Assembly: GCA_028280565.1 (NCBI GenBank)
Contig: JANQLQ010000138.1
Coordinates: 1-37,530, forward strand
DNA length: 37,530 bases
From: Fulvivirga sp.
GTDB taxonomy: Bacteria > Bacteroidota > Bacteroidia > Cytophagales > Cyclobacteriaceae
Direction: 5' to 3'
Shown: piece after piece, positions 4,841-26,845 of the stretch
Numbering within the stretch: the stretch's first letter is position 1
How the letters are laid out: each line of letters opens with the position of its first letter
Program-made: the position numbers and the translations under genes
The notes under the pieces: generated by a model
What the model was told of the DNA's origin: nothing
What the model saw: the letters and a program-made list of their open reading frames with translations, nothing else
Database searches by the model: none

Positions 4841-7800
4841 ATGAAATCGTATGGAACATATTACTGGCAAAGAATAAATTATTTGCTCATCCTATTTTCA
4901 GTGTTTTTCGGATCTTTTTTAACTACCATAACCGTTAGTGGTCAAAACAAAAAAGTCAAGATCTTCCTTATGGCCGGGCAATCCAACATGCAAGGTCATG
5001 GTAATATTGACGCATTGAAAAGAATTCTATGTGCAAAAGGAGATATAGAACTGCCTAACGACCCACAAGGTTGTTACCGTGAAGAAACAGGAGTAGAAGA
5101 GCGTCTTTTTCAAACCATCAGTAGCTTTTACTGGAATGGATCTGCGTACGCTTATGGATACCAAGCATGGCAGGCAAGGCTGGAAGCCATATTGGTTGCC
5201 AGGCATGACTTAGCGGATGAACGCCTGCTTGAGCCTTTCCAGGATGTGCAAATGATCAACTTTAATTACAGTAGAAGTAATGGAGTAAGGTCAGCCCCTG
5301 GTACCTGGTCCGGGCCTTTGACCACTGGTTTTGGCTTCAGTAACCGTAACGGAAGTTATGGCTCTGAGCTGGTTTTTGGACATCGGCTGGCTGAGCATAT
5401 GGCTGATGACATCGTGCTCATTAAAGTGGCCGAAGGAGGTACTGACCTCTATGAAATGTGGCGAAGCCCAAGTATGGAGGCCCGGTTAGGGATAAGTGAT
5501 GAACCTACCAATTATCCATTGCTTGTCCAGCACCTAAACGAGGTTAGGGCTGACATATCTAGCTACCTTCCTAAATATGAAGGAGTAGAAGTAGAAATAG
5601 AAGTAGCCGGCTTTGTGTGGTTCCAGGGTTGGAATGATGCTATGAAGACTACATATGCATCTGCCTATGAAGAAAACCTTTTCGATCTTGTAACGGATTT
5701 AAGGAATGATTTGGACTTACCAGGACTTCCTATCGTGATCGGGCAAACACAAAATGACAGCCAGGACGGTATGATTATCCAGGAAGCTCAGCGCACTGTA
5801 GCCAGCACTATTGAAAATGCCGGTACATTTATTACTACAGATCTTTCTGGCTACTTCCACTTTGATGCAAGCTCTCATTTGATCATCGGGGATAGGATGG
5901 CTAGCGCAATGTTGGAGTTGTATAACATACCTACGTTAGAACCCCTTCCTATTTTTCCGTCACCAATAGCTATTTCTTCATCAGGTCCTAATGCACCAAG
6001 AGTTACGCTTCAATGGGAAGTACCCCCGTTTTATTCCACGGGGTTGAAAATAATGAGGTCTGTAAATTCTGAAGACAACTTTGAAGAAATTGCCACGCTT
6101 TCGCTAAATGACACGGAGTACACGGATAGTGATTTGTTACCGGCATCTACGCACTATTATCAATTGATTAGCTACAATGATTTTGGTGATTCACACAGTA
6201 GTGAAATAGTTAGTTACCAAACAGGCGAACAACTGTCAATACTTCCTTCAACGTGGGCTACTGTAGACATAGGTGATCCTGGCCCCTTAGGTTCAGGCGT
6301 TTATGAAAATGGAACATTTACGTTACAAGGCCCAGGGGCTGGGATTAACGGTAGATCAGACCAGTTTTATTATGTACATCAAGGGCCGTGGGGCAATGGT
6401 GAGATCATTGCAAAAATAGACCATTCCATTGGTTCGGGGAATGAAGCCTTGGCAGGTATCATGATAAGGCGTAATCTCGGCGCCAGTTCTCCCCAAGTGT
6501 CAGTTTTAGTGGATGCGGACGGCCAGGCCGTCTACAAAAGCCGGGGTCATACTTCAGGAACAACGGTCAATGCTAATGGACTGGGCACGGCTAACTGGTT
6601 AAGGTTGGTGAAAGAGGGGAGTAAGATTACTGCCTATAGTTCAGACGATGGAGCGAATTGGCAACTGGTAAGGGAGAAAAGCTTTAGTAATTTAGGCCAT
6701 GACTGTTACTATGGGTTGGCTGTAACGAGCAATGATCCAGCGGTATTAGCCAGCGCGGTATTTAGTGAAGTCGTAATAAATATTGAAAACCAACCCATAC
6801 CTGCGGCACCTTCTGATTTGATAGCAACAGCGGTTTCAGCAGAAGGCATCACGTTGAGTTGGACGGACAATTCTGACAATGAAACCGGTTTTAGGTTAGA
6901 ACGATCCCTGGATGAGAATGCCGGGTTTGAAGAAATAGCAACTTTAAGCGCCGGTATCACCACATACCAAGATACTGTCTTGGAACCTTCTACTACTTAT
7001 TATTACCGTATTTTGGCATACAATGGAGTAGGTGGTGTATCGGATTACAGTGAAACAACAAGTGCAACGACAGAAACACTCCCTGTTTTTGCTATCCCCT
7101 CCCCATGGGAACAGGTAAACATAGGAGAGCCGGACCTTATGGGTTCGGGGGCTTATGAAGATGGAACCTATACCATCTCGGGTTCAGGGGCTGGGATCAA
7201 TGGTAGATCAGACCAGTTTTATTATGTACATCAAGGGCCGTGGGGCAATGGTGAGATCATTACAAAAGTTGACCATTCGGTCGGTTCGGGAAATGGCACC
7301 CTGGCAGGTGTTATGATAAGGCGTAATCTCGGCGCGGGTTCTCCGCAAGTGTCAATTTTAGTCGATGCGGACCGCCAGGCCGTCTACAGAAGCCGGGGTC
7401 ACGCTTCAGGGACGACGGTCAATGCGAATGGCACCGGCACGGCTAACTGGTTAAGGTTGGTTAAGAACGGGAGTACAATCACAGCCTATAGTTCAGACGA
7501 TGGCACGAATTGGCAACTGGTAAGGGAGAAAAGCTTTAGTAATTTAGGCCCCGACTGTTACTATGGGTTGGCTGTAACGGGCAATGATCCGTTGGTATTA
7601 GCTAGTGCAATATTTAGCGGGGTGGTGGTAAATACTGAAAACGAACCCATACCCATGGCACCTTCTGACCTGGTAGCAACGGCAGTTTCGTCAGAAGGTG
7701 TCACGTTGAGTTGGACGGACAATTCTGACAATGAGACTGGCTTTAAACTTGAGCGCTCTACAGGTCCTGGGAATGATTACGAGGAAATTGCCACCTTAGA

Positions 7801-10800
7801 TGCTGATATCATTTCATACCAGGATATGGGACTACAACCCGCTACCCGTTATTACTACAGGTTAAAAGCTTATAATCACTCCTGGGATTCGGATTATAGC
7901 AATAGCGTAAATGTTCAGACAAACACGCCAAGTACAGGGTTGCCTACCCCATGGGTTCAAGGAGGTGTAGGAGAGGAGGATGTTAACGGTAGTGCGAGCT
8001 ATGCCGACGGAACATTTACGATAGCCAGTGATGGAAAAGCCATAAACGGGAGGTCTGACGAGTTTTATTATGTTTACCAGGGTCCATATACCGATGGAGA
8101 AGTAATCGCCAAAATAGAATTATTGCCCGGGCTGGGGAGTCTTTGCCAAGCAGGAATTATGATACGGCAGGGGATAACACCTGCTTCTCCTCATATAGCC
8201 ATATTGATGAGCAACGACTCCACGATTACGGTCAAGAGCCGTGGCCATAATGGGGGAAGTACTGTAAATCACATCGTGCCGCAAGATTCTGCCAGGTGGG
8301 TAAAGCTGGCTAGGGAAGCTAATAAGGTTTCGGCATATATCTCGGTTAATGGAGCGGATTGGCAGTTGACCAGGGAGATGAATTTTAATACCGGTAATTA
8401 TTATTATGGCTTGGTGGTAACAAGCAACAATAGTACTGTTACATCCTCGGCCAAGTTCAGTGAAGTTGTTGTGACAGGCTTGGGCTCGATTCCCCCGGCT
8501 CCTACAGGACTTAGTACCTCTACGGTTTCTTCAACAGGCATAGTGTTGAGCTGGACAGACAATTCCGAAAACGAGACTGGCTTTAAGATCGAACGTTCGT
8601 TGATGGAGAGTGCAGGCTTTGAAGAAATAGCCATTCTTGGAGCAAATGTAACATCTTACGAGGATACAAATCTAACGCCCAATACTACGTATTACTACAG
8701 GGTAAGATCCTATAACGGTAGTGGCAGTTCAGGATTTGATCAAATACAAGACCAGGCACTTCCCCTGGCCCCGTTATTGCCTACTGGGTTACAAGCCACA
8801 GCTTTTTCTGCAAGCGGGATACAGTTGAGTTGGATGGACAACTCAGAAAATGAGACCGGTTTTAGGATAGAACGATCACTCGATATGGACTCCGGTTTTG
8901 TAGAGATAGGTGTATTAAATGCGAATACGAATAGCTATCAAGATGATGAACTGGATCCTTCTACCTATTACTACTATCGCGTGAGGGCGTATAATCCAGG
9001 TGGCATTTCGGATTACAGTGAGGTGGCCGGTACCCAAACAAAAGCAGTTAGCACAGAATTACCGTCCCCTTGGCAAACTGTGGATGTTGGCGAGCCCTTA
9101 GTTGAAGGTGCCGCCGGGTATGATAACGGTAGCTTTTTTGTATGGGGCGCAGGTAACGAGGTAGAAAAACGAAAAGATGAATTTCATTTTGTTTATCAAC
9201 CCTTGCCGAGGAACGGTGAAATTATCGCAAAAGTAAACCAGTTGACTCAAGAAGGTCGAGAATCAAAGGCAGGGCTCATGGTACGGGAATCGCTTTCCGG
9301 CACCCGGACAAGAATGTTTTTTGTTTCATATTCGACTAACGTGAACGCGGATTTTATTGCCAGGTCAAGAGATAGTAAAAGCGGTGGTACACATGGCGGA
9401 GGCCGAAATGCCAACGTTTCCCTTCCTCTCTGGTTGAAATTGGTCAAAGACGGTGAATACTTTTCTGCACATTATGGAACAGACGGGGTCAATTGGACTA
9501 TGATATATGACCGTATTGTACCACTTGATGACGAGGTGTACGCAGGCTTGATGGTAAACAGCAACAATGATTCCAGCGCCAGTAGAGCCGTTTTTAGCGA
9601 TGTAGCTATACATCCTATAGCTACACCGGCTACCCCAAGGGAACTTACAGCGGAAGTAAATGATATCAATACGATCGTCACGCTTGCGTGGCAAGATTAT
9701 GCAAAGGGTGAGCATGGTTTTGTTATCGAAAGATCTACAAGTCCAAATGAAGGTTTTGAAGCTATTGACACTGTAGCAGCAGATACCGAATCTTATCAAG
9801 ATATGGAGGCGCCATTAACTACCTGTTACTATCGCACCAGGTCATATGATCTGCATGGGTTTTCCGCCTATAGTAACGTGGACGATGTATATGTCGGAAC
9901 AATTCCCCAGCCATGGGTAAGCGTGGGTATTGGACATTCTGCTTCTCCAGATACAGTTACTTTCCGGGAAGGACTGTTTAGCATCCACGAAAGTGGAATG
10001 GGTATAGATGGTACTACTGACCAGTTTCGGTACTTGTACCAGGATGCGTTCGGGGATGGAGAGATTGTAGCCCGATTAAGGGGTGTAACATCAACTGGAA
10101 ACAGTTCTAAAGTCGGTTTGATGATCCGTGAAAACCTGGAGCCAGGATCCAAAATGGTAGCTTTTGGGACCATGGATGGAACCTCGGGATTATTCTTCCA
10201 GCGTAGAACGAACAGTGGGAACAATAGCATTTCCGAGCTCATCGGATCGGGAGAAGCACCTATGTGGTTGAAACTTGCCAGGTTGGGTGATGTATTTACA
10301 GCTTATCGCTCGGCAGATGGAGTCAATTGGACCGAGGTAGGACAAGCTACCATTGACTTTTCGGATGACATTTACCTTGGTATGATGGCATCGGGCGGCA
10401 GTATAAACGGAAATGTTACGGGAGTTTTTGATCAACCCATGATCAACAGGTTCAATGCCGGCAATGGTATCTTGAATCTTACAAGAAAAGCCGGGGATTA
10501 TGACAGGTCTGGATTAAACAATATAATAGAAGTGCAGGCCACTCCCGATACAGTCAATAGAAGGAATACCTACACGGGAATGCAAGGTAAAACGATAGTG
10601 GTTGACCTGGCCAATGCCGTAAGATCTAGTAATGCCACAGTTTCCTTCAAGTTCATTCCGGATAGTCTTAACCAGTCAGTAAACCTGCTGGAAACCGATG
10701 ATATTGTAGTCCATCTTGATGGAGATCGTTTAAGCGCCACGATTGCCGGCCAAGTATTCAATAGTGACCTGCCTGTTTCTAATATTATTTGTAATCATGT

Positions 10801-12460
10801 GGCAATAAGGTTTTCCCGGCAGAATATCGGCTTTTATCTTAATGGAGAATGGCAGGTTATCGACAATAACACATCTTTTGAAGTGGATAGATTGACCTTC
10901 TCCGGGTACAAAGGACAAACCTGGGATATACAGGTATATGAAGGTCTGCTGAGTAATTCCGAGATAGAGAAGATCAGCCAGCTTTGCGTTCCCGGGGTGG
11001 ATGCCAGTGAACACTCACCCTATGGAGAAGCCTACACAAAAGCAATTTGTGGTTCGTATAAGTGCCTCTGGGCGAAAGAAGATGTTGATTTGATGCAAGA
11101 GCGGTTTTTATATCACCTTTACGAGCAAGATATATCTTATGAGTTGTTCACCTTCCAGGCTGGCATGTATATTCATGAAGATTTAGAATGGAGTTTGGAT
11201 TACGGTAATGCGCAGAATTGGTGGGTGACGGACAATGAAGCATTTATAAAAGGGAGCTTTGATCAGCCCTTAACCCCAAGCAGCGGACGTCATTGGTTCC
11301 ATGAAAACTTCCATGGCTACCAAAGTTTCAATCCGGATAGAGACTACGCAGGTGGTAAATGGTTATTTGAGGCTACTGCCAATTGGGGGGCTTCCTACAG
11401 GTACAACAACGTGCCAAATTCTGGTGTAACGGGAGTCACCCTATATCCCCACTTGCCGATGTTGGAGTTTGGTAAATACAAAGTCCCTGATGGTAACCGG
11501 GACTATCATCATTACATATTGTTTAGTTACATCACCAGGTTTGTCTCTACACCTTTCTTTATAGGAAAACTTTATAACTACCGGTATGTAGCAAGAGATC
11601 CTGTGAAGGCGATAAATGACATATTAGCAGGGGAAGGTCATGATTTCCAGGAGGTATTTACCGAGTATGTTGCTCGTACCACGGTTTGGGACTACCTGGA
11701 CGGGAGTGGACCTAGCTGGAAAGCTACTGAAGCAGGGGGGATACAAGCTCTTGAAAGTCAAGGCTTCGAGAATTTCAATTACAAATTCACCCATGTTATG
11801 GATCCGGCGGGTACTAATGGGGCTATGACAGCAATTCCTGGAAACCTCTTACCGGGCGTATATTCTTGGAATGCATATAAGATTGATTCCACGACTGCCG
11901 CAACGTATTCTATAAAACTGAAAGGCAGTAGCGATAACCCTGGCGGGACAAATTTTAAAGCAAAGGTGATTAAAGGTCAAGAAGGGAACTACGAATACTT
12001 CGACCTGCCTGTAAATGCGCAAGTGGCTTTTGGAGATGCAATAGCCCAATTTGAACTCAGCATGCAGGCAGGAGAGGAACTATACCTTATCGTTGCCAGC
12101 ACGCCTAACGAATATCCTGATCTCGTTACACCCCGCTATCAGTACGAATATTCGATAGAAGCTATTATACCCACAGGTGCCAGTAGGACCATAAATGATA
12201 ATGAAAGTGAAACAGTGGAGGCTGCAACACTTTTTCCTAATGCAACGAATGGACAACTGAAAATTGATTTACCCTTTGAAATGGAGGAACAATTGGAAGT
12301 AGCCCTGACAAATTCTCAAGGTAGACCTATTCCGTTAGAATTTTGGAGAGAAGGCAACCAGGTCAATGTTGAGTTTGATGCGCCTGAAGGTCTGTATTTT
12401 ATTAGGATCAGGTCTGCTGATTACAATAAACTATTCCGGGTTATCAATATTAAATATTAA
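4841..12460 (+). CDS. Giant T9SS-exported multidomain esterase with HExxH domain (P1)
   Basis: 2539 residues. A signal peptide (~1-35) is followed by an SGNH/SASA-type carbohydrate esterase at ~38-365: MAGQSNM with nucleophile S48, oxyanion-type block VWFQGWND (259-266), and H340 in GYFHFD. Next come six FN3 domains (~369, 653, 937, 1215, 1310, 1595) alternating with five concanavalin-like domains of the DUF1349 type (~465, 750, 1030, 1405, 1686). A LamG-like domain spans ~1875-2048. A putative zinc peptidase unit spans ~2070-2330, with HENFH at 2154-2158 and E2177 after 18 residues. A pre-peptidase-C-like sandwich lies at ~2335-2450 and a Por/T9SS sorting tail at ~2465-2539 (FPNATNG...GLYFIRI). 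The protein is probably cell-surface or released and acts on acetylated glycans or glycoproteins. The DxxH aspartate seen in P2 is G337 here. Confidence 0.85.
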   Translation: MKSYGTYYWQRINYLLILFSVFFGSFLTTITVSGQNKKVKIFLMAGQSNMQGHGNIDALKRILCAKGDIELPNDPQGCYREETGVEERLFQTISSFYWNGSAYAYGYQAWQARLEAILVARHDLADERLLEPFQDVQMINFNYSRSNGVRSAPGTWSGPLTTGFGFSNRNGSYGSELVFGHRLAEHMADDIVLIKVAEGGTDLYEMWRSPSMEARLGISDEPTNYPLLVQHLNEVRADISSYLPKYEGVEVEIEVAGFVWFQGWNDAMKTTYASAYEENLFDLVTDLRNDLDLPGLPIVIGQTQNDSQDGMIIQEAQRTVASTIENAGTFITTDLSGYFHFDASSHLIIGDRMASAMLELYNIPTLEPLPIFPSPIAISSSGPNAPRVTLQWEVPPFYSTGLKIMRSVNSEDNFEEIATLSLNDTEYTDSDLLPASTHYYQLISYNDFGDSHSSEIVSYQTGEQLSILPSTWATVDIGDPGPLGSGVYENGTFTLQGPGAGINGRSDQFYYVHQGPWGNGEIIAKIDHSIGSGNEALAGIMIRRNLGASSPQVSVLVDADGQAVYKSRGHTSGTTVNANGLGTANWLRLVKEGSKITAYSSDDGANWQLVREKSFSNLGHDCYYGLAVTSNDPAVLASAVFSEVVINIENQPIPAAPSDLIATAVSAEGITLSWTDNSDNETGFRLERSLDENAGFEEIATLSAGITTYQDTVLEPSTTYYYRILAYNGVGGVSDYSETTSATTETLPVFAIPSPWEQVNIGEPDLMGSGAYEDGTYTISGSGAGINGRSDQFYYVHQGPWGNGEIITKVDHSVGSGNGTLAGVMIRRNLGAGSPQVSILVDADRQAVYRSRGHASGTTVNANGTGTANWLRLVKNGSTITAYSSDDGTNWQLVREKSFSNLGPDCYYGLAVTGNDPLVLASAIFSGVVVNTENEPIPMAPSDLVATAVSSEGVTLSWTDNSDNETGFKLERSTGPGNDYEEIATLDADIISYQDMGLQPATRYYYRLKAYNHSWDSDYSNSVNVQTNTPSTGLPTPWVQGGVGEEDVNGSASYADGTFTIASDGKAINGRSDEFYYVYQGPYTDGEVIAKIELLPGLGSLCQAGIMIRQGITPASPHIAILMSNDSTITVKSRGHNGGSTVNHIVPQDSARWVKLAREANKVSAYISVNGADWQLTREMNFNTGNYYYGLVVTSNNSTVTSSAKFSEVVVTGLGSIPPAPTGLSTSTVSSTGIVLSWTDNSENETGFKIERSLMESAGFEEIAILGANVTSYEDTNLTPNTTYYYRVRSYNGSGSSGFDQIQDQALPLAPLLPTGLQATAFSASGIQLSWMDNSENETGFRIERSLDMDSGFVEIGVLNANTNSYQDDELDPSTYYYYRVRAYNPGGISDYSEVAGTQTKAVSTELPSPWQTVDVGEPLVEGAAGYDNGSFFVWGAGNEVEKRKDEFHFVYQPLPRNGEIIAKVNQLTQEGRESKAGLMVRESLSGTRTRMFFVSYSTNVNADFIARSRDSKSGGTHGGGRNANVSLPLWLKLVKDGEYFSAHYGTDGVNWTMIYDRIVPLDDEVYAGLMVNSNNDSSASRAVFSDVAIHPIATPATPRELTAEVNDINTIVTLAWQDYAKGEHGFVIERSTSPNEGFEAIDTVAADTESYQDMEAPLTTCYYRTRSYDLHGFSAYSNVDDVYVGTIPQPWVSVGIGHSASPDTVTFREGLFSIHESGMGIDGTTDQFRYLYQDAFGDGEIVARLRGVTSTGNSSKVGLMIRENLEPGSKMVAFGTMDGTSGLFFQRRTNSGNNSISELIGSGEAPMWLKLARLGDVFTAYRSADGVNWTEVGQATIDFSDDIYLGMMASGGSINGNVTGVFDQPMINRFNAGNGILNLTRKAGDYDRSGLNNIIEVQATPDTVNRRNTYTGMQGKTIVVDLANAVRSSNATVSFKFIPDSLNQSVNLLETDDIVVHLDGDRLSATIAGQVFNSDLPVSNIICNHVAIRFSRQNIGFYLNGEWQVIDNNTSFEVDRLTFSGYKGQTWDIQVYEGLLSNSEIEKISQLCVPGVDASEHSPYGEAYTKAICGSYKCLWAKEDVDLMQERFLYHLYEQDISYELFTFQAGMYIHEDLEWSLDYGNAQNWWVTDNEAFIKGSFDQPLTPSSGRHWFHENFHGYQSFNPDRDYAGGKWLFEATANWGASYRYNNVPNSGVTGVTLYPHLPMLEFGKYKVPDGNRDYHHYILFSYITRFVSTPFFIGKLYNYRYVARDPVKAINDILAGEGHDFQEVFTEYVARTTVWDYLDGSGPSWKATEAGGIQALESQGFENFNYKFTHVMDPAGTNGAMTAIPGNLLPGVYSWNAYKIDSTTAATYSIKLKGSSDNPGGTNFKAKVIKGQEGNYEYFDLPVNAQVAFGDAIAQFELSMQAGEELYLIVASTPNEYPDLVTPRYQYEYSIEAIIPTGASRTINDNESETVEAATLFPNATNGQLKIDLPFEMEEQLEVALTNSQGRPIPLEFWREGNQVNVEFDAPEGLYFIRIRSADYNKLFRVINIKY

Positions 12461-12922: not shown

Positions 12923-14149
12923 CTATTGCAAAATAAATTTCATAGGAATCGTCAATTCACAAATGACGGGTTTCCCATTCTTTTTTGCAGGTGTGAACCG
13001 ATCAAGGGATTTTACTGCGTGAATGGCCGCTTTTTCCATCTCCTCATTTATACCATCCCTTGTAGCCGTGGTGTTAGTATATCCTACCACTACCATTTCG
13101 TCAAGTAAATTTTCGGATACCTTTCCCGCTTGAATACCCGAGACTTCCCCGGATTCCGATACACTGAAAGTAACATAAACTGTGCCTTGCCTATTTTCAT
13201 TTTTGGCGGTGGTAGGATAGATTATAGCCTTTCCCAATTTTTTGTACATCGCCGAAACGCCTTGTTTATATTTTGGCAACACACCCGGTTGACTGATAGC
13301 GTGAAATGAACATAGGAATACAATTAATCCTATTAACGGAACTGCTAAGAGTATTTTAAAATAGTTTTGGTTTGAATTGATATTTACGTTATTCATCATT
13401 TTAAATCTTTTTTCTAAACTTGATTCTTTACTTAATTGATTAACCCAATTTGCTGATCCACCTGTGCAGGTTTGAAACAGTAATTGCTGATAATCCAACA
13501 AATCGATACCACTTTTCAAAACTTCCCGGTCCGCAATGAACTCGTGGGACAACTTGACCTCTTTCTTTATTAGCCATGAGAACGGGTTGAACCACATGAT
13601 AATGGTCAGCAATTCTAACAGCAATACATCAAAAGAATGATATTGAGTTTTATGAACTCGTTCATGAGTGATCAATGCTCCCAGTCCCGGTGAGTTCATC
13701 ACCCCGGGACCTACGAACAAGAAATTGAAAAATGTACTGGGAGAAAGCATACTATTTACCTCTACAACGTAAAATCCCCATTTTTTCAACGTTGGAGAAG
13801 CTAAATAGTAATACAACAGGGTAGCTAATCCTGCTGTAGAGCGAAGGGCAAGCAAAATTGCCCCGATTATATAAACAATTGAATATATACTTAAGGAATG
13901 GTGATCGTGCCAGGACTCTTTGGTGATTGGCGCCACCATTTTTGATTCCACAAGTGCTCCCACAGACTCGAATGAATAGTGAGAAGAACCAAGTTCGAAA
14001 TGAAACAAAGGGAGCACAAGTGAGCATAGTATGCCAAATACTAAGATCAACCTGTTGGATTGTGGGTTATTCGTGTTTCTAAGTATTAGCCTATACAAAA
14101 GATAAGTAGCTATTAAGCTAATATTGGCTTTGATTAAATAAGTCTCCAT
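12923..14149 (-). CDS. blaR1: BlaR1/MecR1-type M56 membrane metalloprotease sensor with TonB-like tail
   Basis: 408 residues. The N-terminal part has about four membrane segments (residues ~8-23, 33-50, 88-105, 178-192). The M56 zinc site is HERVH at 162-166 with the downstream SHEFIADR block (201-208). A further membrane segment lies at ~278-298. The C-terminal ~110 residues resemble a TonB C-terminal domain (GTVYVTFSVSESGEVSG...). Family members sense a signal outside and cleave the cognate BlaI repressor. The penicillin-binding sensor domain of classical BlaR1 is absent, so the ligand is unknown. It forms an operon with blaI: the stop of blaI and this ATG share one base (TAATG). Confidence 0.88.
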   Translation of the reverse strand: METYLIKANISLIATYLLYRLILRNTNNPQSNRLILVFGILCSLVLPLFHFELGSSHYSFESVGALVESKMVAPITKESWHDHHSLSIYSIVYIIGAILLALRSTAGLATLLYYYLASPTLKKWGFYVVEVNSMLSPSTFFNFLFVGPGVMNSPGLGALITHERVHKTQYHSFDVLLLELLTIIMWFNPFSWLIKKEVKLSHEFIADREVLKSGIDLLDYQQLLFQTCTGGSANWVNQLSKESSLEKRFKMMNNVNINSNQNYFKILLAVPLIGLIVFLCSFHAISQPGVLPKYKQGVSAMYKKLGKAIIYPTTAKNENRQGTVYVTFSVSESGEVSGIQAGKVSENLLDEMVVVGYTNTTATRDGINEEMEKAAIHAVKSLDRFTPAKKNGKPVICELTIPMKFILQ

Positions 14150-14529
14150 TATTTCTTCTTTTTTTCGGACAACTTCTTTTTGAAATACTCTAAAATACTT
14201 TCCATCTCTTCGGTTGATAAATTTTCATTTTTAGAAAAGTCAGATATCAAATTCTTAAAAGAGTTTGAAAAGTAGTTTTTAACCAATGATTTCATGATCC
14301 CATTGGTATAATCAGACTTCTTAACTAATGGGCGATATTCAAAAGAGTTCGCGATAGGTTTTCTAGTCACAAAGCCTTTCTTTTCTAGTATTTTAAGTAT
14401 AGTCGCCACCGTAGTATAAGCAGGTTTTGGTTCATCATATCCATTTATAATATCCCTGACTACCCCTTTTTTGAGCTTCCAGAGAATTTTCATGACCCTT
14501 TCTTCTGCCTTTGTAAGCTCCAAGTCCAT
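14149..14529 (-). CDS. blaI: BlaI/MecI/CopY family repressor
   Basis: A 126-residue winged-helix repressor. The N-terminal DNA-binding domain (LTKAEERVMKILWKLKKGVVRDI...PAYTTVATILKILEKKGFVTR) has the invariant 'AYTTV.TIL..LE.KG' recognition region. The C-terminal half provides dimerisation and the BlaR1 cleavage region. Length is normal. It is the first gene of a two-gene operon and lies 28 bp from a perfect palindrome that fits its own operator, so autorepression relieved by BlaR1 cleavage is expected. No beta-lactamase or other obvious target is adjacent. Confidence 0.92.
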   Translation of the reverse strand: MDLELTKAEERVMKILWKLKKGVVRDIINGYDEPKPAYTTVATILKILEKKGFVTRKPIANSFEYRPLVKKSDYTNGIMKSLVKNYFSNSFKNLISDFSKNENLSTEEMESILEYFKKKLSEKKKK

Positions 14530-17227: not shown

Positions 17228-18449
17228 ATGAAGACGAGGATTGTCACCGCCTTTTTAGCTGTGGTCATTGGGATGGGTCCTACTGCGGCTCAAAATAAAT
17301 TGTCTAACTCAAAAAATGAAAGAATTTCAGATCAACATCTCACCCGGAGAGATCAACGAACTCAACACTCGCCTAGGTAAAACCCGCTGGATAAATGAAA
17401 CTACTGCAAGGGGCTGGGGCGACCCGACATTGGATGTTTCGGCCGTTAAAGAACTAACAGGTTATTTGAGAGACAGTTTCGATTGGAAAAAGCAAGAAAC
17501 CTACATCAATAGTTTCCCCCAATTCAAGGCTTTGGTCAACAATGTCAACATACATTTTGTGTACCAAAAGGGAAGAGAAAGCAAACACATTCCAATCCTA
17601 TTATTGCATGGGTGGGCAAGCAACTTTACCGAGTTTTTGAAAACCGCGGAACTACTTAAAAAAGAAAATCCAGCGGTTGATGTAGTTATTCCCTCCCTCC
17701 CAGGTTTTGCCTTTTCAGATGCACCCGGGAGTATGGCCTCAGAAACCGCAGCTGAGCACATCCATCAATTGATGACGGAGGTATTAGGGTACAAGAATTT
17801 CTATGTGCATGGTAGTGATTATGGAACTTTTATTGGAGAAAAACTCGCGTTAACGTATCCCGGATCTGTAAAAGGTTTGCATTTGTCCGATATCCCATTT
17901 TACCATTTTTATGCGCCCAATGAAAATCTCTCCCAAGTAGAAAAAGATCACATCTAAAAGATAAATGACGGGTCTATGCAAGATGGAGCCTATGCCATGA
18001 TACAAAGTACAAAACCCAAAACGTTATCTACGGGACTTAATGATTCCCCTGCGGCGCTAGCTGCCTGGCTGTTGCAGCTATATTTTGACTTTGGAGATAA
18101 GGAACTACCTATCTTTGAAAGGTATTCAAAAGACGATTTGCTTGTAAATATATGTTTATATTGGTTTACTGGATCCATTTACTCATCTCTTCGGCTTTAT
18201 TCGGAGGACATGAGTGGTTTCGAGGACAAACCTATTGGAAAGGTAGCTGTACCTGCAGCTTTTAATTTCCATGAGTATGATATTACAGGATTTGTTCCTA
18301 GGGAATTTGCCGAACGCTTTTTTTCTAACATTGTATCTTGGACAGAATTCAACGAAGGTGGACATTTTGCTGGACTTTCACATCCGCGACAACTAAAAAA
18401 TGACTTGATCCAGTTTATTGAAAAAGTTGAACAAAACAGGGATAGGTAA
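17228..18449 (+). pseudogene. Secreted epoxide hydrolase (EHN + alpha/beta hydrolase), doubly disrupted
   Basis: A signal peptide is encoded from the ATG at 17228 (MKTRIVTAFLAVVIGMGPTAA, then QNKLSNS). Its frame shifts away from the enzyme at a run of six A (17311-17316); five A would join the frames. The enzyme frame (usable ATG at 17316) has the epoxide hydrolase N-terminal region, the HGW oxyanion motif (98-100), the nucleophile D168 in GSDYG, and after an in-frame TAA at 17955-17957 continues with GAYAMIQSTKP...LNDSPAALAAWLLQ and the C-terminal catalytic His in EGGHFAGLSHP. With both lesions repaired it would be a complete exported enzyme. A cytosolic N-terminal fragment ending before the cap would be inactive. 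Confidence 0.8.
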
Positions 18450-19916: not shown

Positions 19917-20031
19917 GTAACGGATGATAAGCTCAATGAGCAAACCGAGCCATGAGCAACTTTTACTATGAAACAGTAACTTTAAAAGCAAAAAAGGACA
20001 ACCATACTCACCGGGCTTATTTGGATATTAC
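19917..20031 (+). repeat. attC-like inverted-repeat element B
   Basis: Starts 15 bp after a stop codon. The outer GTAA (19917-19920) pairs with TTAC (20028-20031); the inner arms ATAAGCTCAATGAGCA (19927-19942) and TACTCACCGGGCTTAT (20005-20020) pair at 12 of 16 positions, separated from the outer pair by unpaired spacers of about 6-7 nt. This two-step pairing is the attC layout. The sequence is closely related to element C. Confidence 0.45.
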
Positions 20032-20054
20032 TTCCCATTAAGAAAAAACAAAAA

Positions 20055-20519
20055 ATGGATTTGATAAAATGTGATCGTTGTGAATCGGGTTTTAGACCTT
20101 CTTCTGAACAGGTGAATTTCATCCTGTCCTCAAAGGAAAAGGGAATGACTTTTATAATGTTGGAATGCGGAAACTGTGGAATGTCATTTCCTTTTAACCC
20201 TTCTAGTACTGCGCTTTTCGATGAAGAACCCCAGGAAATTCCCATTCGAACCCCTATCCCCGGTTCTCATGGGTATGTTTCGTTTGTAGATGACGAAGAT
20301 GAAAAGTTTTATGGATGTGGAGAGACAGGTGCCATTTGGCGGAATAAAGAAAACTTATCCAGGGACATTGAAGCGATAATTAATAAGTATCCTCACAGGA
20401 AAAAATGTTATTTAAAGACGGGTTCTGGCTGGATTGCTAATTCAAACGAGCCAAGTAATATGGATGAATTAATTGATCAAGAAGAAGTAGAAGAATTACG
20501 AAGGTTTAAAAGAGATTGA
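20055..20519 (+). CDS. Hypothetical zinc-ribbon protein
   Basis: A 154-residue cytosolic protein not assigned to a known family. An N-terminal zinc-ribbon-like unit has two CxxC knuckles, C6-x2-C9 (KCDRCES) and C38-x2-C41 (ECGNCGM), so one Zn ion is likely bound. The middle is strand-rich (GSHGYVSFVDDEDEKFYGCGETGAIW) and the C-terminus is acidic and helical (SNMDELIDQEEVEELRRF). The ATG follows an A-rich leader typical of Bacteroidota. The gene lies alone between attC-like elements B and D, like a single integron cassette. Confidence 0.65.
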   Translation: MDLIKCDRCESGFRPSSEQVNFILSSKEKGMTFIMLECGNCGMSFPFNPSSTALFDEEPQEIPIRTPIPGSHGYVSFVDDEDEKFYGCGETGAIWRNKENLSRDIEAIINKYPHRKKCYLKTGSGWIANSNEPSNMDELIDQEEVEELRRFKRD

Positions 20520-20530
20520 ATTTAAGAACA

Positions 20531-20605
20531 GCATACAACAATGGCTAAAATGCCCGCCCAGTCAACCTGGCATTTGCAGGATATTTTAGCCGGAACGTTA
20601 TCAGC
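20531..20605 (+). repeat. attC-like stem-loop element D
   Basis: Begins 12 bp after a stop codon. The outer AAC (20537-20539) and GTT (20597-20599) flank perfect 9-bp inner arms GGCTAAAAT (20543-20551) and ATTTTAGCC (20583-20591). The spacers are 3 and 5 nt, and the loop contains a second perfect 7-bp pairing option (AAATGCC/GGCATTT). The geometry (core, spacer, arm, loop, arm, spacer, core) is that of attC; the core heptamers deviate from RYYYAAC/GTTRRRY. Confidence 0.45.
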
Positions 20606-20924
20606 AAGGCATTAGATTAGTTTTGTTTTAAGAGATCTCTTGGTGGTAACTATGAAAATCATGTGCCTTAATGAATGATACAGGTTAAACCTTGAAAAGT
20701 AGGTGACAGTCAATGAGCTTTTGCACGCCCATGCCATAGGCATCCCTTTGGGGAAAGAAAACGAAACAAAAGAAAAGGGTGCCGGCAACCCAGCCACTTT
20801 TCCTTTCGAAACCCGCTATCTTGCCGCTATAGGCCGCTTACGTACAGCCCTCAAATGGGCTGGGCTGTTCCTGGCTGTCCTTCCTCCCTACGTCACTTGA
20901 ATTTTCAATGATACCCTAAAAAGA

Positions 20925-20956
20925 ATCCCCTGGAGCAACCTTATGCCCCAGGGGAT
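20925..20956 (-). terminator. Rho-independent terminator of P2
   Basis: Perfect 9-bp GC-rich stem (ATCCCCTGG / CCAGGGGAT) with a 14-nt loop, 24 bp beyond the P2 stop. On the minus strand it is followed by TTCTTTTTA, a good U tract. Confidence 0.85.
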
Positions 20957-20980
20957 CTCACAAAATACTAAACAACAACC

Positions 20981-23900
20981 CTACTCTTTAAACAGTTTGA
21001 ATTTTTCGTCAAAATGTTCGGATTTGATCCAAACGTAATATAGACCTGATGGGCCTTCAAATTTCACATGAATCTTATCGCCATCCTGTTTCGCTTTGAA
21101 AGGAGCTTTGATCCCTAAGGTATTCACAATATTTATCTCTACGTGATCTCCAGGGGCAGTAGTTAACCTAATGGTTATATTCCCGTCTGTTTTATTCGGA
21201 TAGATCTTAACCCCCTTATCATTAGTTAAACCAGCTGCTTGTTCTTCATCATCGATGAACTTACGTGCGTTAGCTTCCAGCAGTGTACTGGCTCCGTAAG
21301 GAATGGCCTCAATAGCATAGTCATACTGGTAAAGCGATCCCAGTAACTCATCCCGGTAGTCACTGGGCGTACTGACCACCACTAGGTAGAGCTCTTCCCC
21401 GGCCTCGGTGTCGATGTTGAATTGCGCTTCGCCGCCGCCATAAGCTACCGTTTCACTAACGGGCATTTCAAAATATTCATAAGAGATGCCACTGCCTTTG
21501 ACGATCATGGCCCGGAAATTTGTGCCTTCCGGGTTTATATCCTTTCCTTTTAGTCTTATGGTATAAGTAGCCGCAGCCGTGGAGTCTACTTTATAGGTAT
21601 TCCATGCATAAACACCCGGCAAGAGGTCCGCAGGGATAGCTGTCATCACTCCGCCAGTTCCTTCTGCTGGCATTACGTTGGCAAACCTATGGTTAAAATC
21701 TACCATCCCCATATTTTCAAAAGCTTCAATAGCCGCCTGGTCACGAGCAGCAAAAGCATCACTGACACTACGATCCGGGTAATCCCATACCGCGGTACGT
21801 GCTGCAAATTCTACGAATACGTCTTCGAAATCATGCCCTTCTTTGGATAGCTGATCTTCCAAAGCGGTTATGGCATGTCTTTCTATTTGCGGATTATTAT
21901 GAAGCCTTCCGATAAATGCCGGTTCAGAGACGAATTTAGTAATGTAACTGAAAATGATAGACCAATGATAGATGCGGTTATACCCGGCGTAATGCAATAG
22001 CATAGGTAAATGCGGATCGAAGGTAACTTTGTCCACACCTCTCTGCGGATAATCATACCGGTACCATGCAGCCCAGTTAGCAGAGGCTTCTCTCGTCCAT
22101 TTACTACCTCCGAATGGAGTACCCACTTGGTAATCGTGGAAGTTTTCGTGCCACCAATACGAAGTGTTATGATCTTCCTTAGTCATAGGATTCGCAAAGG
22201 TATACCTGACCCAGCTCTCGTCTTCGTATATCCTTATATCCCTTCTATGCCGGCCTGCTAAATGCCCATCCAGGTCACTATGATCGTACATACCTATCTC
22301 GAAAGTGAACAGCTCGTATGATATCTCCTGTTGTTTGAGGTAGTACAGGAACCTCTCCTGGCTTAAGTCTTTGGTATTACTGGCCCAAAGACACACATAG
22401 GAACCGCATAAAGAATTAGGCTGGTCTTGGCTGGGTGAGTACACACTTGAATCCACCCCGGGAACACAGCGCTGGCTTAACTTGATGATCTCTTCGTCAC
22501 TAACCAACCGGTCGACCAGCAGGACATCCCAAAGCTGGCCATTGTATTCACCCAAACTAAACTCGTGGATATCAAATGCCACGTTATTGGACAGCGAGCT
22601 CCATTCGCCGTTGACATAGATCTCTATCGATGGGTGGTTTAGACGGAGTGCAATGTGATTACAAGTGATCGTATCCAACCTGGCGCTGCTCGTCCACTGT
22701 GATCCGTCAATAGTCACGGTAACCCGGTCATCCACCTGGCGGATAGTAAGCCGTTCTGACCGGAACAGGTCCGCTGCTTGGAATAAATTATCGGGAATTA
22801 CCTTAAAGGAGATCGTTCCATTGGAAGAAGATAAGGTATTTTCAAGTCCTACAGCAATTTGTTTGCCCCTCAAGCCGGTGTAGGTATTTTGCTCATTGAC
22901 TTGACCGGGCCCGGTAGTGACCGTAATCGTGTTATTCGCATTCGATTTGTCATGATCACCGGACAACCTTGATAAGAAAAGAATGGTATTTTCATATTCC
23001 AGTACATCAGCTCTTTCTACCAGGCTGTAGCTGGAGTTTCCATCTTGGTTATAGGCTCTTATGCGATAGAAATAGGTGCCAGGGGCCAACGTTTGTTCCT
23101 GGTAGGAGGTGACGTTAGCCGAGACCGTAGCGATTTCCTCGAAGCCGATACCATCTACCGACCTCTCGATCCAGAACCCGGTCTCGTTATCCGAATTGTC
23201 CGTCCAGTGCAAAGTGATCTTATTGGCCAGGTCACTATTGGCTGTTAATGCGGATGGAGGCATTAGTTCGTTTGGAGATAGGCTCACACTTACATTGTTC
23301 CACTCACTCTTGGTACTTTTGTTATCATGGAAAGCATACGATACTATCCCCACATACATGGATCTTCCCATCTCCACGATATCCTGGTGTGTTTCTTCCC
23401 ATGTTATCCCATCTGAAGACCTGGAGGCCGTGAAAGTATTCCCGGACCTTGCCAATTTTAGCCAAACCGGTGCACTAGCATTGCTGTTCTCGACGTTTGA
23501 GAATCCTGCTGAACTTCGTCGTTGAAAAAAGATCTTGGCATTGGCATTGACCAATGTCATGGCATACCTGGCGTTAGGATCTAACGTTTCCCGCATCATT
23601 AAGCCGGTATTATTCCAACCCGCTTGCTGGACAAAGTCCAGTTTTGCAATAATTTCGGAATCCCCGCCTAACTGCTGGTAGACATAATGAAAACTATCGA
23701 AGCTTTCGGTCATGTACCCATTGCCGATTACTGTGAACTCTCCTTCATTATAGGAAGTAGATCCAACGAGGGCAACGTTCCCCACGTCTGCACTTGCCCA
23801 TCCCTGTGGCAGCTCGCCGGTACTCCAAGGTATAATGCTGGCTACTTCACTGTAACCAGAATCCCCGGTATTGTTAAAGGCCTGTACCCGGTAGTAAAAG

Positions 23901-26845
23901 GTAGCGCCCGGGGTTTGCGGGGTGTCTTGGTAAGAAGTGGTGTTGGCAGAGACCGTAGCAATTTCCTGGAAGCTTGTGCCATCCAACGACCTTTCTATCC
24001 TAAACCCGGTCTCGTTACCCGAATTGTCGGTCCAGCTCAACGTGACACCGTTTGAATAGACCAGGGTCAGTGCCGTAGGAGAAACGGGCGCCGATTGTCC
24101 TTGAACTATATCTACATTGCTCCACTCGCTCCTGGTGGTTTTGTTATTATGGGGGGCATATGATACTATCCCCACATAGATGGGGCCTCCCATCTCCACG
24201 ATATCCTGGTGTGTTTCTTCCCAAGTTATCCCGTCCGAGGACCTGGAGGCCGTAAATGTATTCCCGGACCTGGCCAGCTTTAGCCAAACCGGTGCACTAG
24301 CATTGCTGTTCTCTACACTCGAGAACCCTGCTGAACTTCGTCGTTGAAAAAAGATCTTGGCATTGGCATTGACCAGTGTCATGGCATACTTGGCGTTAGG
24401 CGCTAGTGTTTCCCGCATCATTAAGCCTGTGTTGTTCCAACCCGCTTGCTGGACAAAGTCCAGTTTTGCAATAATTTCGGAATCCCCGCTTAACTGCTGG
24501 TAGGCGTAATGAAAATTATCGAAGCTTTCGGTCATGTACCCATTGCCGGTTACGGTAAACTCTCCTTGGTTATAGGAAGTAGACCCAACGAGGGCAACGT
24601 TCCCCACATCTGCACTTGCCCACCCCTGTGGCAATTCACCGGCACTGGGGGGTACGATACTGGCTACTTCACTGTAACCGGAATCCCCGGTATTATTAAA
24701 GGCCTGTACCCGGTAGTAAAAGGTAGCACCCGGGGTCTGCGTGTTGTCTTGGTAGGAGATGGTGTTGGCAGAAACCGTAGCAATTTCCTGGAAGCTCGTG
24801 CCATCCAATGACCTTTCTATCCTAAACCCGGTCTCATTACCCGAATTGTCGGTCCAGTTCAACGTAACACCGTTTGAATAGGCCAGGGTCAGTGCGGTAG
24901 GAGAAACAGGCACTGATTGTCCTTGGACTATACCTACATTGCTCCACTCGCTCCTGGTGGTTTTATTATTATGGAGGGCATATGATGCTATCCCTACATA
25001 GATGGATTCCCCCATCTCCACGATATCCTGGTGTGTTTCTTCCCAAGTTATCCCATCCGAGGACCTGGAGGCCGTAAATGTATTCCCGGACCTGGCCAGT
25101 TTCAACCAAACCGGTGCACTAGCATTGCTGTTCTCTACACTCGAGAATCCTGCTGAACTTCGTCGTTGAAAAAAGATCTTGGCATTGGCATTGACCAGTG
25201 TCATGGCATAGCTGGCGTTAGGATCTAACGTTTCCCGCATCATTAAGCCGGCATTATTCCAACCCGCTTTTTGAACAAAGTTCAGTTTTGCAATAATTTC
25301 AGCATCCCCGCTTAACTGCTGGTAAGCGTAATGAAAACTATCGAAGTTCTCGGTCATGTACCCATTGCCGGTTACGGTAAACTCCCCTTGGTTATAGGAA
25401 GTAGACCCAACGAGGGCAACATTCCCCACATCCGTACTCGCCCATCCTGCAGGCATTCCATTGACCAGCGGTGATGTAGTAGAGCTGGATATTCCACTAT
25501 TTGGTGAATCCCCGACACCGTTGTTGGCATGAACCCTATAGTAATACGTGGTACCATGGGATAATTCCGCGTCAAGGTAAGAGGTGGTATTGGCAGGAAC
25601 AACGGCAATTACTTCGAAACCTGTTTGAGCATTGGTAGAACGTTCCACCCAAAATGAATCTTCATTGTTGGAATTGTCCGTCCAGGACAGTTGGACCTGG
25701 AGAACAGGCTGGACTGATGTAGAAAGGCCTGAAGGAGCTACCGGGAGCGTGCTGTGTATGGGTGCCAGGCCCAGCAGTTCCTTCATTTCCTCTCCCATCC
25801 GGTGTCCTATGACCAGGTGCGAACCCGAATCGAAATGAAAGTAATCGGACAGATCCTGTGTAAATACGGACGAGGCATTGCCGATGCTGTTACCTACTGC
25901 TTCTTGAGCCGCCCGGACGATCAGGCCATTCTCCCCGGTATGTTGTGTTTGCCCGATAACTACCGGGAGTTCCGGCATCCCCAGGTCATTTCTAAGGTCT
26001 GTGACCAGGTCAGCCAGGTTTTGTTCATATCCGGAAGCATATTCTGAATTCACCGCGTCATTCCAGCCTTGGAACCACACAAAGCCGGCTACTTCTGTTT
26101 CTACCGCTTGTCCCGCATATTTGGGTAATATGCTGCCGATATCAGCTCTCACCTCGTTTAAATGCTGGATAAGTAAAGGGTAATTACTAGGCTCATCACC
26201 CGGACCCAGCCGGGCCTCCATACTCGGGCTTCTCCACTGTACATGTAAATTGGTACCCCCTTCGGCGACTTTTAATAATACAATGTCATCCTCACTAAAC
26301 GACGAAAGGTAATGGCCAAACATCAATTCAGGCCCGTAACTCATTTGATCATTGTCAAATCCATAACCAATAGTTAAGGGGCCTGACCAGGTACCGGGGT
26401 CAAACCTAACACCATTTTGCCTGCGATAGTTAAAGTTGATGGCCTGTACTTTATCAAAAGGAAATAAAAGCCGCGCATCGACCTGGTGGTATTGACTGAT
26501 GAGCTGTGCTTCCAGCCTTGCATGGACAGGATCATACGTAGGATGAGATCCGTAAAAGCTGCTTATGGTACTGAACAAACGCTCTTCCTGGTTTGGCAAG
26601 GAGCTGTAGCATCCGTTCGGGTCACCAGGAATACTAATTTCGTCTTTAGCGCAAAGTATCTGCCTCAATTGATCTCCGTTTGCATGTCCTTGCATGTTAG
26701 ACTGCCCGGCCATCAGGAAGATCTTGACTTTCCTGGTTTGCGCTTGTGCTTGATGATGAGGTGATATAGCGCCAACAATAATCAACAGGAAAACCAGTAG
26801 GAATGAATTTATTCCCGGTCTTGTAGTTAGAATTATCTTTTTCAT
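20981..26845 (-). CDS. Giant T9SS-exported multidomain esterase with HExxH domain (P2)
   Basis: 1954 residues from the ATG at 26845 (MKKIILTT...); the ORF could begin 12 codons earlier, but this start gives a normal signal peptide ending at QAQAQ. Same plan as P1. SASA/SGNH esterase ~37-375 with S49 in MAGQSNM and an intact DYFH dyad. Then four FN3 domains (~372, 647, 922, 1193) alternate with three concanavalin-like domains (~463, 735, 1008), and a LamG-like domain covers ~1285-1458. The HExxH unit lies at ~1468-1718 (HENFH 1566-1570, E1586 after 15 residues), followed by a pre-peptidase-C-like sandwich and the T9SS tail (YPNKTDG...GLYYVWIKSEHFDEKFKL). The FN3 plus concanavalin units repeat at exactly 822 bp. 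It ends at a strong terminator. Confidence 0.85.
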   Translation of the reverse strand: MKKIILTTRPGINSFLLVFLLIIVGAISPHHQAQAQTRKVKIFLMAGQSNMQGHANGDQLRQILCAKDEISIPGDPNGCYSSLPNQEERLFSTISSFYGSHPTYDPVHARLEAQLISQYHQVDARLLFPFDKVQAINFNYRRQNGVRFDPGTWSGPLTIGYGFDNDQMSYGPELMFGHYLSSFSEDDIVLLKVAEGGTNLHVQWRSPSMEARLGPGDEPSNYPLLIQHLNEVRADIGSILPKYAGQAVETEVAGFVWFQGWNDAVNSEYASGYEQNLADLVTDLRNDLGMPELPVVIGQTQHTGENGLIVRAAQEAVGNSIGNASSVFTQDLSDYFHFDSGSHLVIGHRMGEEMKELLGLAPIHSTLPVAPSGLSTSVQPVLQVQLSWTDNSNNEDSFWVERSTNAQTGFEVIAVVPANTTSYLDAELSHGTTYYYRVHANNGVGDSPNSGISSSTTSPLVNGMPAGWASTDVGNVALVGSTSYNQGEFTVTGNGYMTENFDSFHYAYQQLSGDAEIIAKLNFVQKAGWNNAGLMMRETLDPNASYAMTLVNANAKIFFQRRSSAGFSSVENSNASAPVWLKLARSGNTFTASRSSDGITWEETHQDIVEMGESIYVGIASYALHNNKTTRSEWSNVGIVQGQSVPVSPTALTLAYSNGVTLNWTDNSGNETGFRIERSLDGTSFQEIATVSANTISYQDNTQTPGATFYYRVQAFNNTGDSGYSEVASIVPPSAGELPQGWASADVGNVALVGSTSYNQGEFTVTGNGYMTESFDNFHYAYQQLSGDSEIIAKLDFVQQAGWNNTGLMMRETLAPNAKYAMTLVNANAKIFFQRRSSAGFSSVENSNASAPVWLKLARSGNTFTASRSSDGITWEETHQDIVEMGGPIYVGIVSYAPHNNKTTRSEWSNVDIVQGQSAPVSPTALTLVYSNGVTLSWTDNSGNETGFRIERSLDGTSFQEIATVSANTTSYQDTPQTPGATFYYRVQAFNNTGDSGYSEVASIIPWSTGELPQGWASADVGNVALVGSTSYNEGEFTVIGNGYMTESFDSFHYVYQQLGGDSEIIAKLDFVQQAGWNNTGLMMRETLDPNARYAMTLVNANAKIFFQRRSSAGFSNVENSNASAPVWLKLARSGNTFTASRSSDGITWEETHQDIVEMGRSMYVGIVSYAFHDNKSTKSEWNNVSVSLSPNELMPPSALTANSDLANKITLHWTDNSDNETGFWIERSVDGIGFEEIATVSANVTSYQEQTLAPGTYFYRIRAYNQDGNSSYSLVERADVLEYENTILFLSRLSGDHDKSNANNTITVTTGPGQVNEQNTYTGLRGKQIAVGLENTLSSSNGTISFKVIPDNLFQAADLFRSERLTIRQVDDRVTVTIDGSQWTSSARLDTITCNHIALRLNHPSIEIYVNGEWSSLSNNVAFDIHEFSLGEYNGQLWDVLLVDRLVSDEEIIKLSQRCVPGVDSSVYSPSQDQPNSLCGSYVCLWASNTKDLSQERFLYYLKQQEISYELFTFEIGMYDHSDLDGHLAGRHRRDIRIYEDESWVRYTFANPMTKEDHNTSYWWHENFHDYQVGTPFGGSKWTREASANWAAWYRYDYPQRGVDKVTFDPHLPMLLHYAGYNRIYHWSIIFSYITKFVSEPAFIGRLHNNPQIERHAITALEDQLSKEGHDFEDVFVEFAARTAVWDYPDRSVSDAFAARDQAAIEAFENMGMVDFNHRFANVMPAEGTGGVMTAIPADLLPGVYAWNTYKVDSTAAATYTIRLKGKDINPEGTNFRAMIVKGSGISYEYFEMPVSETVAYGGGEAQFNIDTEAGEELYLVVVSTPSDYRDELLGSLYQYDYAIEAIPYGASTLLEANARKFIDDEEQAAGLTNDKGVKIYPNKTDGNITIRLTTAPGDHVEINIVNTLGIKAPFKAKQDGDKIHVKFEGPSGLYYVWIKSEHFDEKFKLFKE

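What the first reader, a model, noticed from the sequence alone, without database searches (positions are those of the whole stretch)
4841..26845. A pair of giant paralogous secreted proteins joining an esterase, binding domains and an HExxH module
P1 (2539 residues) and P2 (1954 residues) share one plan: a GQSNM-type esterase first, then alternating FN3 and concanavalin-like domains, LamG-like, HExxH unit, pre-peptidase-C-like sandwich and T9SS tail. Domain families are known singly; the combination of a glycan-deacetylating domain with a possible protease on one exported chain suggests an enzyme that opens acetylated glycoproteins. I do not know a described example.
Basis: partly seen in the sequence, partly recalled or inferred. 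Interest (0 to 1): 0.7.

Follow-up and report, generated by a model that had tools for sequence, protein, structure and literature searches.

The report
Giant secreted metallopeptidases with fused esterase
A bacterium carries giant secreted proteins that join an esterase-like domain, a string of sugar-binding-type domains and a zinc protease of a kind known to cut a sugar-coated protein; the protease half looks solid, while the esterase half is an optional and doubtful addition.

Summary
The two genes are real and the domain order is nearly as read. The HExxH unit and the 'pre-peptidase-C-like sandwich' together are one known unit, DUF6055 (hhalign 97.3%, E 2e-11). A third copy is spread over two contig ends, and a close P2 ortholog lies in a MAG of the same genus.

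Four of four canonical DUF6055 proteins tested match NCBI's Svx/AvrXca model, below its cut-off. Svx is a proven gluzincin peptidase that cuts extensin, a heavily O-glycosylated protein, and loses that when its glycan-recognising domain is removed. P1, P2 and five related modules keep HEXXH-X(14-18)-E. The protease half is well supported by homology; activity is untested.

The deacetylase half is weaker. All four copies read QGW where SASA enzymes read QGE; the Block V Asp is Gly in P1, Asn in copy 3. Relatives in two other genera have the binding domains and peptidase but no esterase. Against plain decay, P2's esterase domain has dN/dS 0.14.

Best reading: T9SS-exported, glycan-anchored Svx-like peptidases with a genus-specific SASA fusion. 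Substrate unknown.

The parts
4841..12460 (+). P1, 2539 aa: signal peptide, SASA, FN3/DUF1349 array, LamG-like, DUF6055 peptidase unit, T9SS tail
4943..5980 (+). P1 SASA (SGNH esterase-like) domain; Ser48, QGW at 262-264, Gly337 at the Block V Asp place, His340
5978..10468 (+). P1 array of six FN3 and five DUF1349 units
10469..11020 (+). P1 LamG-like domain (weak Laminin_G_3)
11003..12193 (+). P1 DUF6055-type peptidase unit incl. C-terminal sandwich
11300..11371 (+). P1 zinc-site signature: His2154, Glu2155, His2158, Glu2177
12230..12445 (+). P1 T9SS sorting tail (22.5 bits, cut-off 23)
20981..26881 (-). P2, 1966 aa from the first ATG (1954 from 26845), same plan
25730..26743 (-). P2 SASA domain; Ser61, QGW at 271-273, Asp346 (Block V), His349 (1966-aa numbering)
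22985..25744 (-). P2 array of four FN3 and three DUF1349 units, the latter 87-91% identical to each other
22427..22984 (-). P2 LamG-like domain (weak)
21257..22444 (-). P2 DUF6055-type peptidase unit
22088..22150 (-). P2 zinc-site signature: His1578, Glu1579, His1582, Glu1598
20987..21205 (-). P2 T9SS sorting tail (27.5 bits, cut-off 23)

Best explanation
P1, P2 and a third copy are giant cargo proteins of the type IX secretion system. Their working end is a zinc metallopeptidase of the DUF6055/Svx kind (gluzincin: both His of HENFH and a downstream Glu bind zinc, the Glu of HENFH activates water). The FN3, DUF1349 and LamG modules hold the enzyme on a glycan-rich target and give it reach, in the way the glycan-recognising domain of Svx directs it to extensin. 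In this genus a SASA/SGNH domain has been fused in front; in P2 it may still remove O-acetyl groups, in P1 and copy 3 it is more likely weak or non-catalytic. Shown here: domain order, homology of the peptidase unit, intact zinc-site signature, a T9SS in the genome, no esterase in the relatives of two other genera. Inferred: peptidase activity, a glycoprotein as substrate, the role of the binding modules, any esterase activity.
For: DUF6055 over the Pfam cut-off in both proteins. hhalign of four window-type units against 14 canonical DUF6055 domains: 97.3%, E 2e-11, HExxH on HExxH; with seven modules 97.7%, E 1.8e-12; a SASA profile as control 0.2%. HENFH-x-x-Q and the third Glu are invariant in seven of seven modules, spacing 14-18, inside the HEXXHX(8,28)E of gluzincins. 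Four of four canonical DUF6055 proteins tested match NCBIfam Svx/AvrXca, 76-213 bits, all under its cut-off of 625; L015, L024 and L028 match through its C-terminal part too (to position 555-557 of 601). Svx: stimulated by zinc, abolished by EDTA, 3.1- and 3.5-fold lower in the two Glu-to-Ala mutants; cuts extensin, needs its glycan-recognising domain for that but not for azocasein. SprA 2514 bits and at least 150 T9SS tails in the genome. dN/dS of P2 against its ortholog: peptidase core 0.084, DUF1349-1 0.101, SASA 0.144, LamG 0.177, sandwich 0.151. The core FN3-DUF1349-FN3-LamG-DUF6055 recurs without SASA in two other genera.
Against: The window proteins and units have no direct hit to the Svx model (E <= 1, E <= 0.1); the link runs through canonical DUF6055. 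HMMER covers only positions 154-394 of 417; the N-terminal part of DUF6055 is not matched. AlphaFold2 gave no usable model of the catalytic part (mean pLDDT 46), and PDB sequence search found no peptidase. Of three Svx sugar-site residues only the Asn four after the third Glu is kept (six of seven modules; Asp in the seventh), Trp136 and Gly137 have no counterpart at the same ungapped distance. Glycan binding by the DUF1349 and LamG units is assumed, not tested. The P1 tail falls just under its cut-off.
Confidence: 0.68

Rival explanations
1. Dual enzyme: the SASA domain deacetylates the glycans of a glycoprotein and the peptidase on the same chain then cuts the exposed backbone. (A sub-case of the best explanation as to the peptidase.)
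For: Both ends show purifying selection between P2 and its ortholog. GQSN Ser and the His are present in P1, P2, the ortholog and copy 3; P2 and its ortholog keep the Block V Asp. A SASA enzyme without that Asp can be active: EcNanS lacks it.
Against: QGE reads QGW in all four copies, while 11 of 11 SASA loci of other genomes and three of three other own SASA proteins read QGE; substitution of these residues is reported to abolish activity. Two other genera do without the esterase.
Confidence: 0.3
2. The SASA domain is a retired esterase that serves as one more binding or structural module; the protein is a single-activity glycopeptidase.
For: QGW in all four copies; Gly or Asn at the Block V Asp in P1 and copy 3; fusion seen in one genus only in what was searched.
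Against: GQSN, Ser and His are kept and dN/dS over the P2 domain is 0.144, which a retired active site does not need.
Confidence: 0.45
3. The whole chain is an adhesin; the HExxH unit binds metal for folding or adhesion and does not cut.
For: Giant FN3 arrays are common in adhesins (general knowledge); the esterase-free relatives also carry DUF285 repeats in the same chain; no activity has been measured.
Against: Full gluzincin signature in seven of seven modules, lowest dN/dS of the segments compared in that core, shown activity in the Svx relative.
Confidence: 0.12

Closest known systems
Svx/AvrXca peptidases (Pectobacterium, Dickeya, Xanthomonas; NF040510)
   Same: Gluzincin HEXXHX(n)E of the DUF6055 kind, secreted, with a glycan-recognising module on the chain; some Svx-like proteins of other bacteria carry FN3 or CBM35 modules
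   Different: The window proteins are far diverged (no direct hit), show no left-handed beta-helix domain, carry a T9SS tail (Svx of Pectobacterium leaves by type II secretion), a LamG, DUF1349 arrays and SASA
Canonical DUF6055 (PF19527) proteins of Bacteroidota
   Same: Same catalytic unit; two of seven scanned have a T9SS tail over the Pfam cut-off, two more a weak one
   Different: The seven scanned are 637-968 aa and show no SASA, fn3 or DUF1349 at E <= 0.001
[quoted passage not shown]
   Same: Gluzincin glycopeptidase with several carbohydrate-binding domains; closest fold to Svx by its authors
   Different: Pfam's M60 family does not match P1 or P2; no SASA domain is mentioned in the passages read
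SASA/CE6 acetylesterases (2apj, 1zmb, EcNanS, Axe6A/B)
   Same: GQSN nucleophile block; sequence match to 2apj and 1zmb; AF2 model (pTM 0.65) finds 2apj first, E 6.3e-7
   Different: QGW in place of QGE; Block V Asp lost in P1 and copy 3; fused to a peptidase
MXAN_6640 family putative metalloprotease (NF045524)
   Same: HExxHxxQ with a downstream Glu; hhalign 80-88% with 18 such sequences, seven of seven of which tested are members
   Different: The window units score 20.7 and 18.7 bits, cut-off 140

Membership tests
DUF6055 (PF19527) | Score over the Pfam gathering cut-off (27 bits) | tested here: met
   41.4 bits P1, 38.9 bits P2; the two G806 relatives are just under (26.1, 23.8)
DUF6055 (PF19527) | Match over the whole profile | tested here: not met
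   157-391 and 154-394 of 417 by HMMER; hhalign extends the match back over HExxH
gluzincin metallopeptidase | HEXXHX(8,28)E | tested here: met
   X18 in P1 and copy 3, X15 in P2 and its ortholog, X14 in three relatives
gluzincin metallopeptidase | Catalytic fold | tested here: inconclusive
   AF2 on three sequences failed in this part
gluzincin metallopeptidase | Zinc-dependent proteolysis | not testable with these tools
   needs protein
Svx/AvrXca (NF040510) | Score over the curated cut-off (625 bits) | tested here: not met
   no hit for P1/P2 at E <= 1 or their units at E <= 0.1; four canonical DUF6055 proteins hit at 76-213 bits, also under it
Svx/AvrXca (NF040510) | Left-handed beta-helix acyltransferase-like domain | tested here: not met
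   no hexapeptide-repeat family in P1/P2 at E <= 1
Peptidase M60 | Pfam M60 match | tested here: not met
   not among the families at E <= 1
MXAN_6640 HExxH (NF045524) | Score over the curated cut-off (140 bits) | tested here: not met
   20.7 bits P1 unit, 18.7 bits P2 unit
SASA (PF03629)/CE6 | Score over the Pfam cut-off and GQSN block | tested here: met
   98.1 and 99.3 bits; GQSNM in all copies
SASA (PF03629)/CE6 | Block III (H)QGE motif | tested here: not met
   FQGW in P1, P2, copy 3 and the ortholog; QGE in 11 of 11 loci of other genomes and in three other own SASA proteins
SASA (PF03629)/CE6 | Block V Asp three before the catalytic His | tested here: inconclusive
   Asp in P2 and ortholog, Gly in P1, Asn in copy 3; Asp in 8 of the 11 other loci, the motif not being displayed in the remaining 3
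T9SS cargo | C-terminal sorting domain over the cut-off, and T9SS machinery in the genome | tested here: met
   TIGR04183: P2 27.5, copy 3 40.5, P1 22.5 (just under 23); SprA 2514 bits

The most novel reading that the evidence does not exclude
One exported chain that carries both an O-acetylesterase and a glycoprotein-cutting zinc peptidase: it strips acetyl masks from a glycoprotein and cuts the backbone beneath, with QGW in place of QGE as a new oxyanion arrangement in the SASA family.
Probability: 0.25. Interest if true: 0.68.

Novelty: new variant of a known kind. Interest (0 to 1): 0.5.

Why it matters
DUF6055 is still named a domain of unknown function, yet by way of the Svx family it joins a shown glycoprotein-cutting metallopeptidase; I saw the two connected in no paper (DUF6055 occurs in one paper of the library; 'DUF' not in the main text of the Svx paper searched for it). 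The same unit in other Bacteroidota, here on chains full of binding modules, suggests that glycan-guided proteolysis of this type is not limited to plant pathogens. If the esterase works, unmasking and cutting of a glycoprotein would be coupled in one exported chain, and the QGW variant would widen the known SASA chemistry. Both points can be tested with purified domains.

Tried and rejected
Structure of the C-terminal module by AlphaFold2 from the three sequences allowed: mean pLDDT 46, catalytic part unusable. The strongest PDB matches of that model are concanavalin-type folds over about 110-230 columns, which fits its LamG part (the top rows are binding domains of a toxin, taken as fold likeness only).

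PDB sequence search with profile A1: 44 hits, E 0.0029 to 0.78, all viral spike chains over about 31 residues; rejected as chance.

More relatives: viral contigs none; plasmids none for the module, one weak SASA match; genome contigs one locus, from two short patterns. That scan and the samples missed the two genera found, so they are lower bounds.

A DNA pattern for W-[FY and near]-Q-G-[CFLW and near]-N-D in 238 genomes of the phylum: only the three own copies. A stricter pattern in viral contigs: three loci, in none of them an open frame of 100 aa or more with WFQGWND.

Tandem repeats of period up to 500 in the window: none; the P2 unit is longer (274 aa apart).

I considered calling P1's esterase dead for its Block V Gly and did not: EcNanS also lacks that Asp.

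Literature on the combination; nothing describing it.

Full report
Observation. Both giant frames exist at the stated places and share one plan with 41-44% identity in colinear blocks. Pfam finds SASA, fn3, DUF1349 and DUF6055 over their cut-offs in both, and a T9SS tail below Pfam's cut-off; the NCBIfam tail model is over its cut-off in P2 and 0.5 bits under it in P1. Scanning P1 in pieces gives five DUF1349 units and a Laminin_G_3, each below cut-off, DUF6055 in the HExxH piece (30.7 bits) and weakly in the sandwich piece (14.2 bits). So the HExxH unit and the sandwich behind it are parts of one family, and no PPC domain rings. The three DUF1349 units of P2 are 87-91% identical to each other; in P1 only the first two are close, 144 of 180.

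A third copy. Searching the own genome for SASA and DUF6055 gives, besides P1 and P2, a SASA-FN3-DUF1349-FN3 frame cut by the end of contig C77 and a frame with DUF1349, LamG-like, DUF6055 and T9SS tail cut by the end of contig C13 (for the tail). Both break in FN3/DUF1349 repeats. The simplest reading is one third gene broken in assembly; this is inferred and the pieces were not joined. An ortholog of P2 (89% identity in the module) lies in LYSV01000023.1, titled 'MAG: Flammeovirgaceae bacterium BBD 1991-12 Richardson'. Its frame is split in three. I take BBD to mean black band disease of corals; one search found papers on that disease but none with the string 'BBD 1991-12' (listing seen only).

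How widespread. With the LamG-DUF6055 profile A1, own genome counted each time: 2 of 15 genomes of the genus; 4 of 245 of the family, one of these (G016, 26.9 bits) only over the LamG part; 2 of 390 of the order, one a weak partial match; 3 of 395 of the phylum, two of them weak partial matches. The samples overlap, are drawn evenly rather than complete, and use a loose first look. The full module lies in two further genera of the family: G806 (two copies, 1602 and 1611 aa) and G865 (1703 aa). Their chains begin with signal peptide and FN3, go on with DUF1349, FN3, LamG-like and DUF6055, then DUF5018, DUF285 and a T9SS tail, and have no SASA. Limits: DUF1349 is under its cut-off in G806 and not listed by Pfam in G865 (seen by eye), and DUF6055 is just under its cut-off in the two G806 proteins (26.1, 23.8) and over it in G865 (37). 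The module tree sets P2 with its ortholog, P1 with copy 3, and the esterase-free genera outside both. So peptidase plus binding modules is the constant core, and the esterase is an addition seen in one genus.

The peptidase. hhalign of four window-type units with 14 canonical DUF6055 domains: 97.3%, E 2e-11, 269 columns, HExxH on HExxH. A SASA profile as control gives 0.2%, and 18 HExxHxxQ proteins give 80%; with seven modules 97.7% and 88.3%. Seven of those 18 were tested and all are MXAN_6640 family members over cut-off. HENFH-x-x-Q and the downstream Glu are invariant in seven of seven modules. DUF6055 is in one paper of the library, where an Aspergillus peptidase assigned to M106 has a complete active site and a DUF6055 domain (PMC11241649, passages read). 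The key link: four of four canonical DUF6055 proteins that I scanned match NCBIfam Svx/AvrXca, L012 of the window's genus at 76.3 bits, L015, L024 and L028 at 153-213 bits, all below that model's cut-off of 625. The window proteins themselves do not match it. On Svx I read parts 1 and 2 of 7 of PMC9266454, parts 1 and 2 of 7 plus passages of PMC13164431, and the start of the abstract and two passages of PMC10815107. They report 20% more activity with zinc, none with EDTA, 3.1- and 3.5-fold lower activity in the two Glu-to-Ala mutants, HEXXHX(22)E, cleavage of carrot extensin but not of porcine mucin or concanavalin A, and loss of extensin cleavage, not of azocasein cleavage, when the acyltransferase-like domain is removed. 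The authors find the closest fold in ZmpB of family M60 and a sugar site with Trp136, Gly137 and Asn171. Asn171 lies four after the third Glu (Glu167); that place is Asn in six of our seven modules and Asp in G865. The other two have no counterpart at the same distance before HExxH.

The esterase. The SASA domain matches 2apj and 1zmb by sequence. Its AF2 model (pTM 0.65, mean pLDDT 59) has only 2apj chains at E <= 0.001. The review PMC9487903 (section 8 and passages) says that the HQGE motif positions the oxyanion Gln, appears universal in the family, and that substitution abrogates activity; also that EcNanS lacks the Block V Asp. All four copies here read FQGW. QGE stands in 11 of 11 SASA loci of other genomes brought by profile A3 and in the three other own SASA proteins, on C229, C37 and C263. 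The Block V residue is Asp in P2 and its ortholog, Gly in P1 and Asn in copy 3. Against decay, dN/dS is 0.144 over 328 codons between P2 and its ortholog; this is one pair, by a simple counting method, and says nothing on P1 or copy 3.

Export. SprA is present at 2514 bits. The tail search lists 150 matches, which is the number scored of 225 candidates, so a lower bound.

Mechanism and verdict. Most likely a T9SS-exported, glycan-anchored zinc peptidase that cuts a glycoprotein, with a genus-specific SASA fusion of uncertain activity. Catalysis, substrate and glycan binding are inferred from relatives.

Noticed in passing
L005:3232-7122 (contig C77), L081:7770-12371, L083:1-3597: A DUF285-repeat protein stands next to the peptidase gene in three of seven loci (copy 3 at C77, one copy of G806, G865); Pfam confirms the first two, the third is judged by eye. 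In the esterase-free relatives DUF285 repeats are also inside the peptidase chain.
   Followed up: partly
L008:2735-5391 (contig C13), L081:12733-14559, L083:9759-11564: A TPR-type gene lies near the same three genes: TPR histidine kinase with a LytTR response regulator at C13, TPR with a weak LuxR-type end in G806, TPR only in G865.
   Followed up: partly
L015, L024, L028: DUF6055 proteins of other Bacteroidota match the Svx/AvrXca model nearly end to end, beta-helix part included (YdcK-type hits there), and have Asn at the Svx sugar-site place (EGHAN/ETHAN); they look like Svx-type proteins outside Proteobacteria.
   Followed up: partly
window 17268-18449: Two neighbouring frames (229 and 157 aa) read by eye like two parts of one epoxide-hydrolase-type gene, with a stop between.
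   Followed up: no
window 12923-14529: A BlaI/BlaR1-type pair (Penicillinase_R; Peptidase_M56 with a TonB_C end) lies between P1 and P2.
   Followed up: no
L048:1036-7219: The P2 ortholog in G010 stands beside genes that look by eye like the DUF1501/DUF1553 cytochrome-type clusters known from planctomycetes.
   Followed up: no
window 10790-11065: Cys1984, Cys2049, Cys2070 and Cys2075 of P1 are invariant in seven of seven modules, possible disulfides in and behind the LamG-like part.
   Followed up: no
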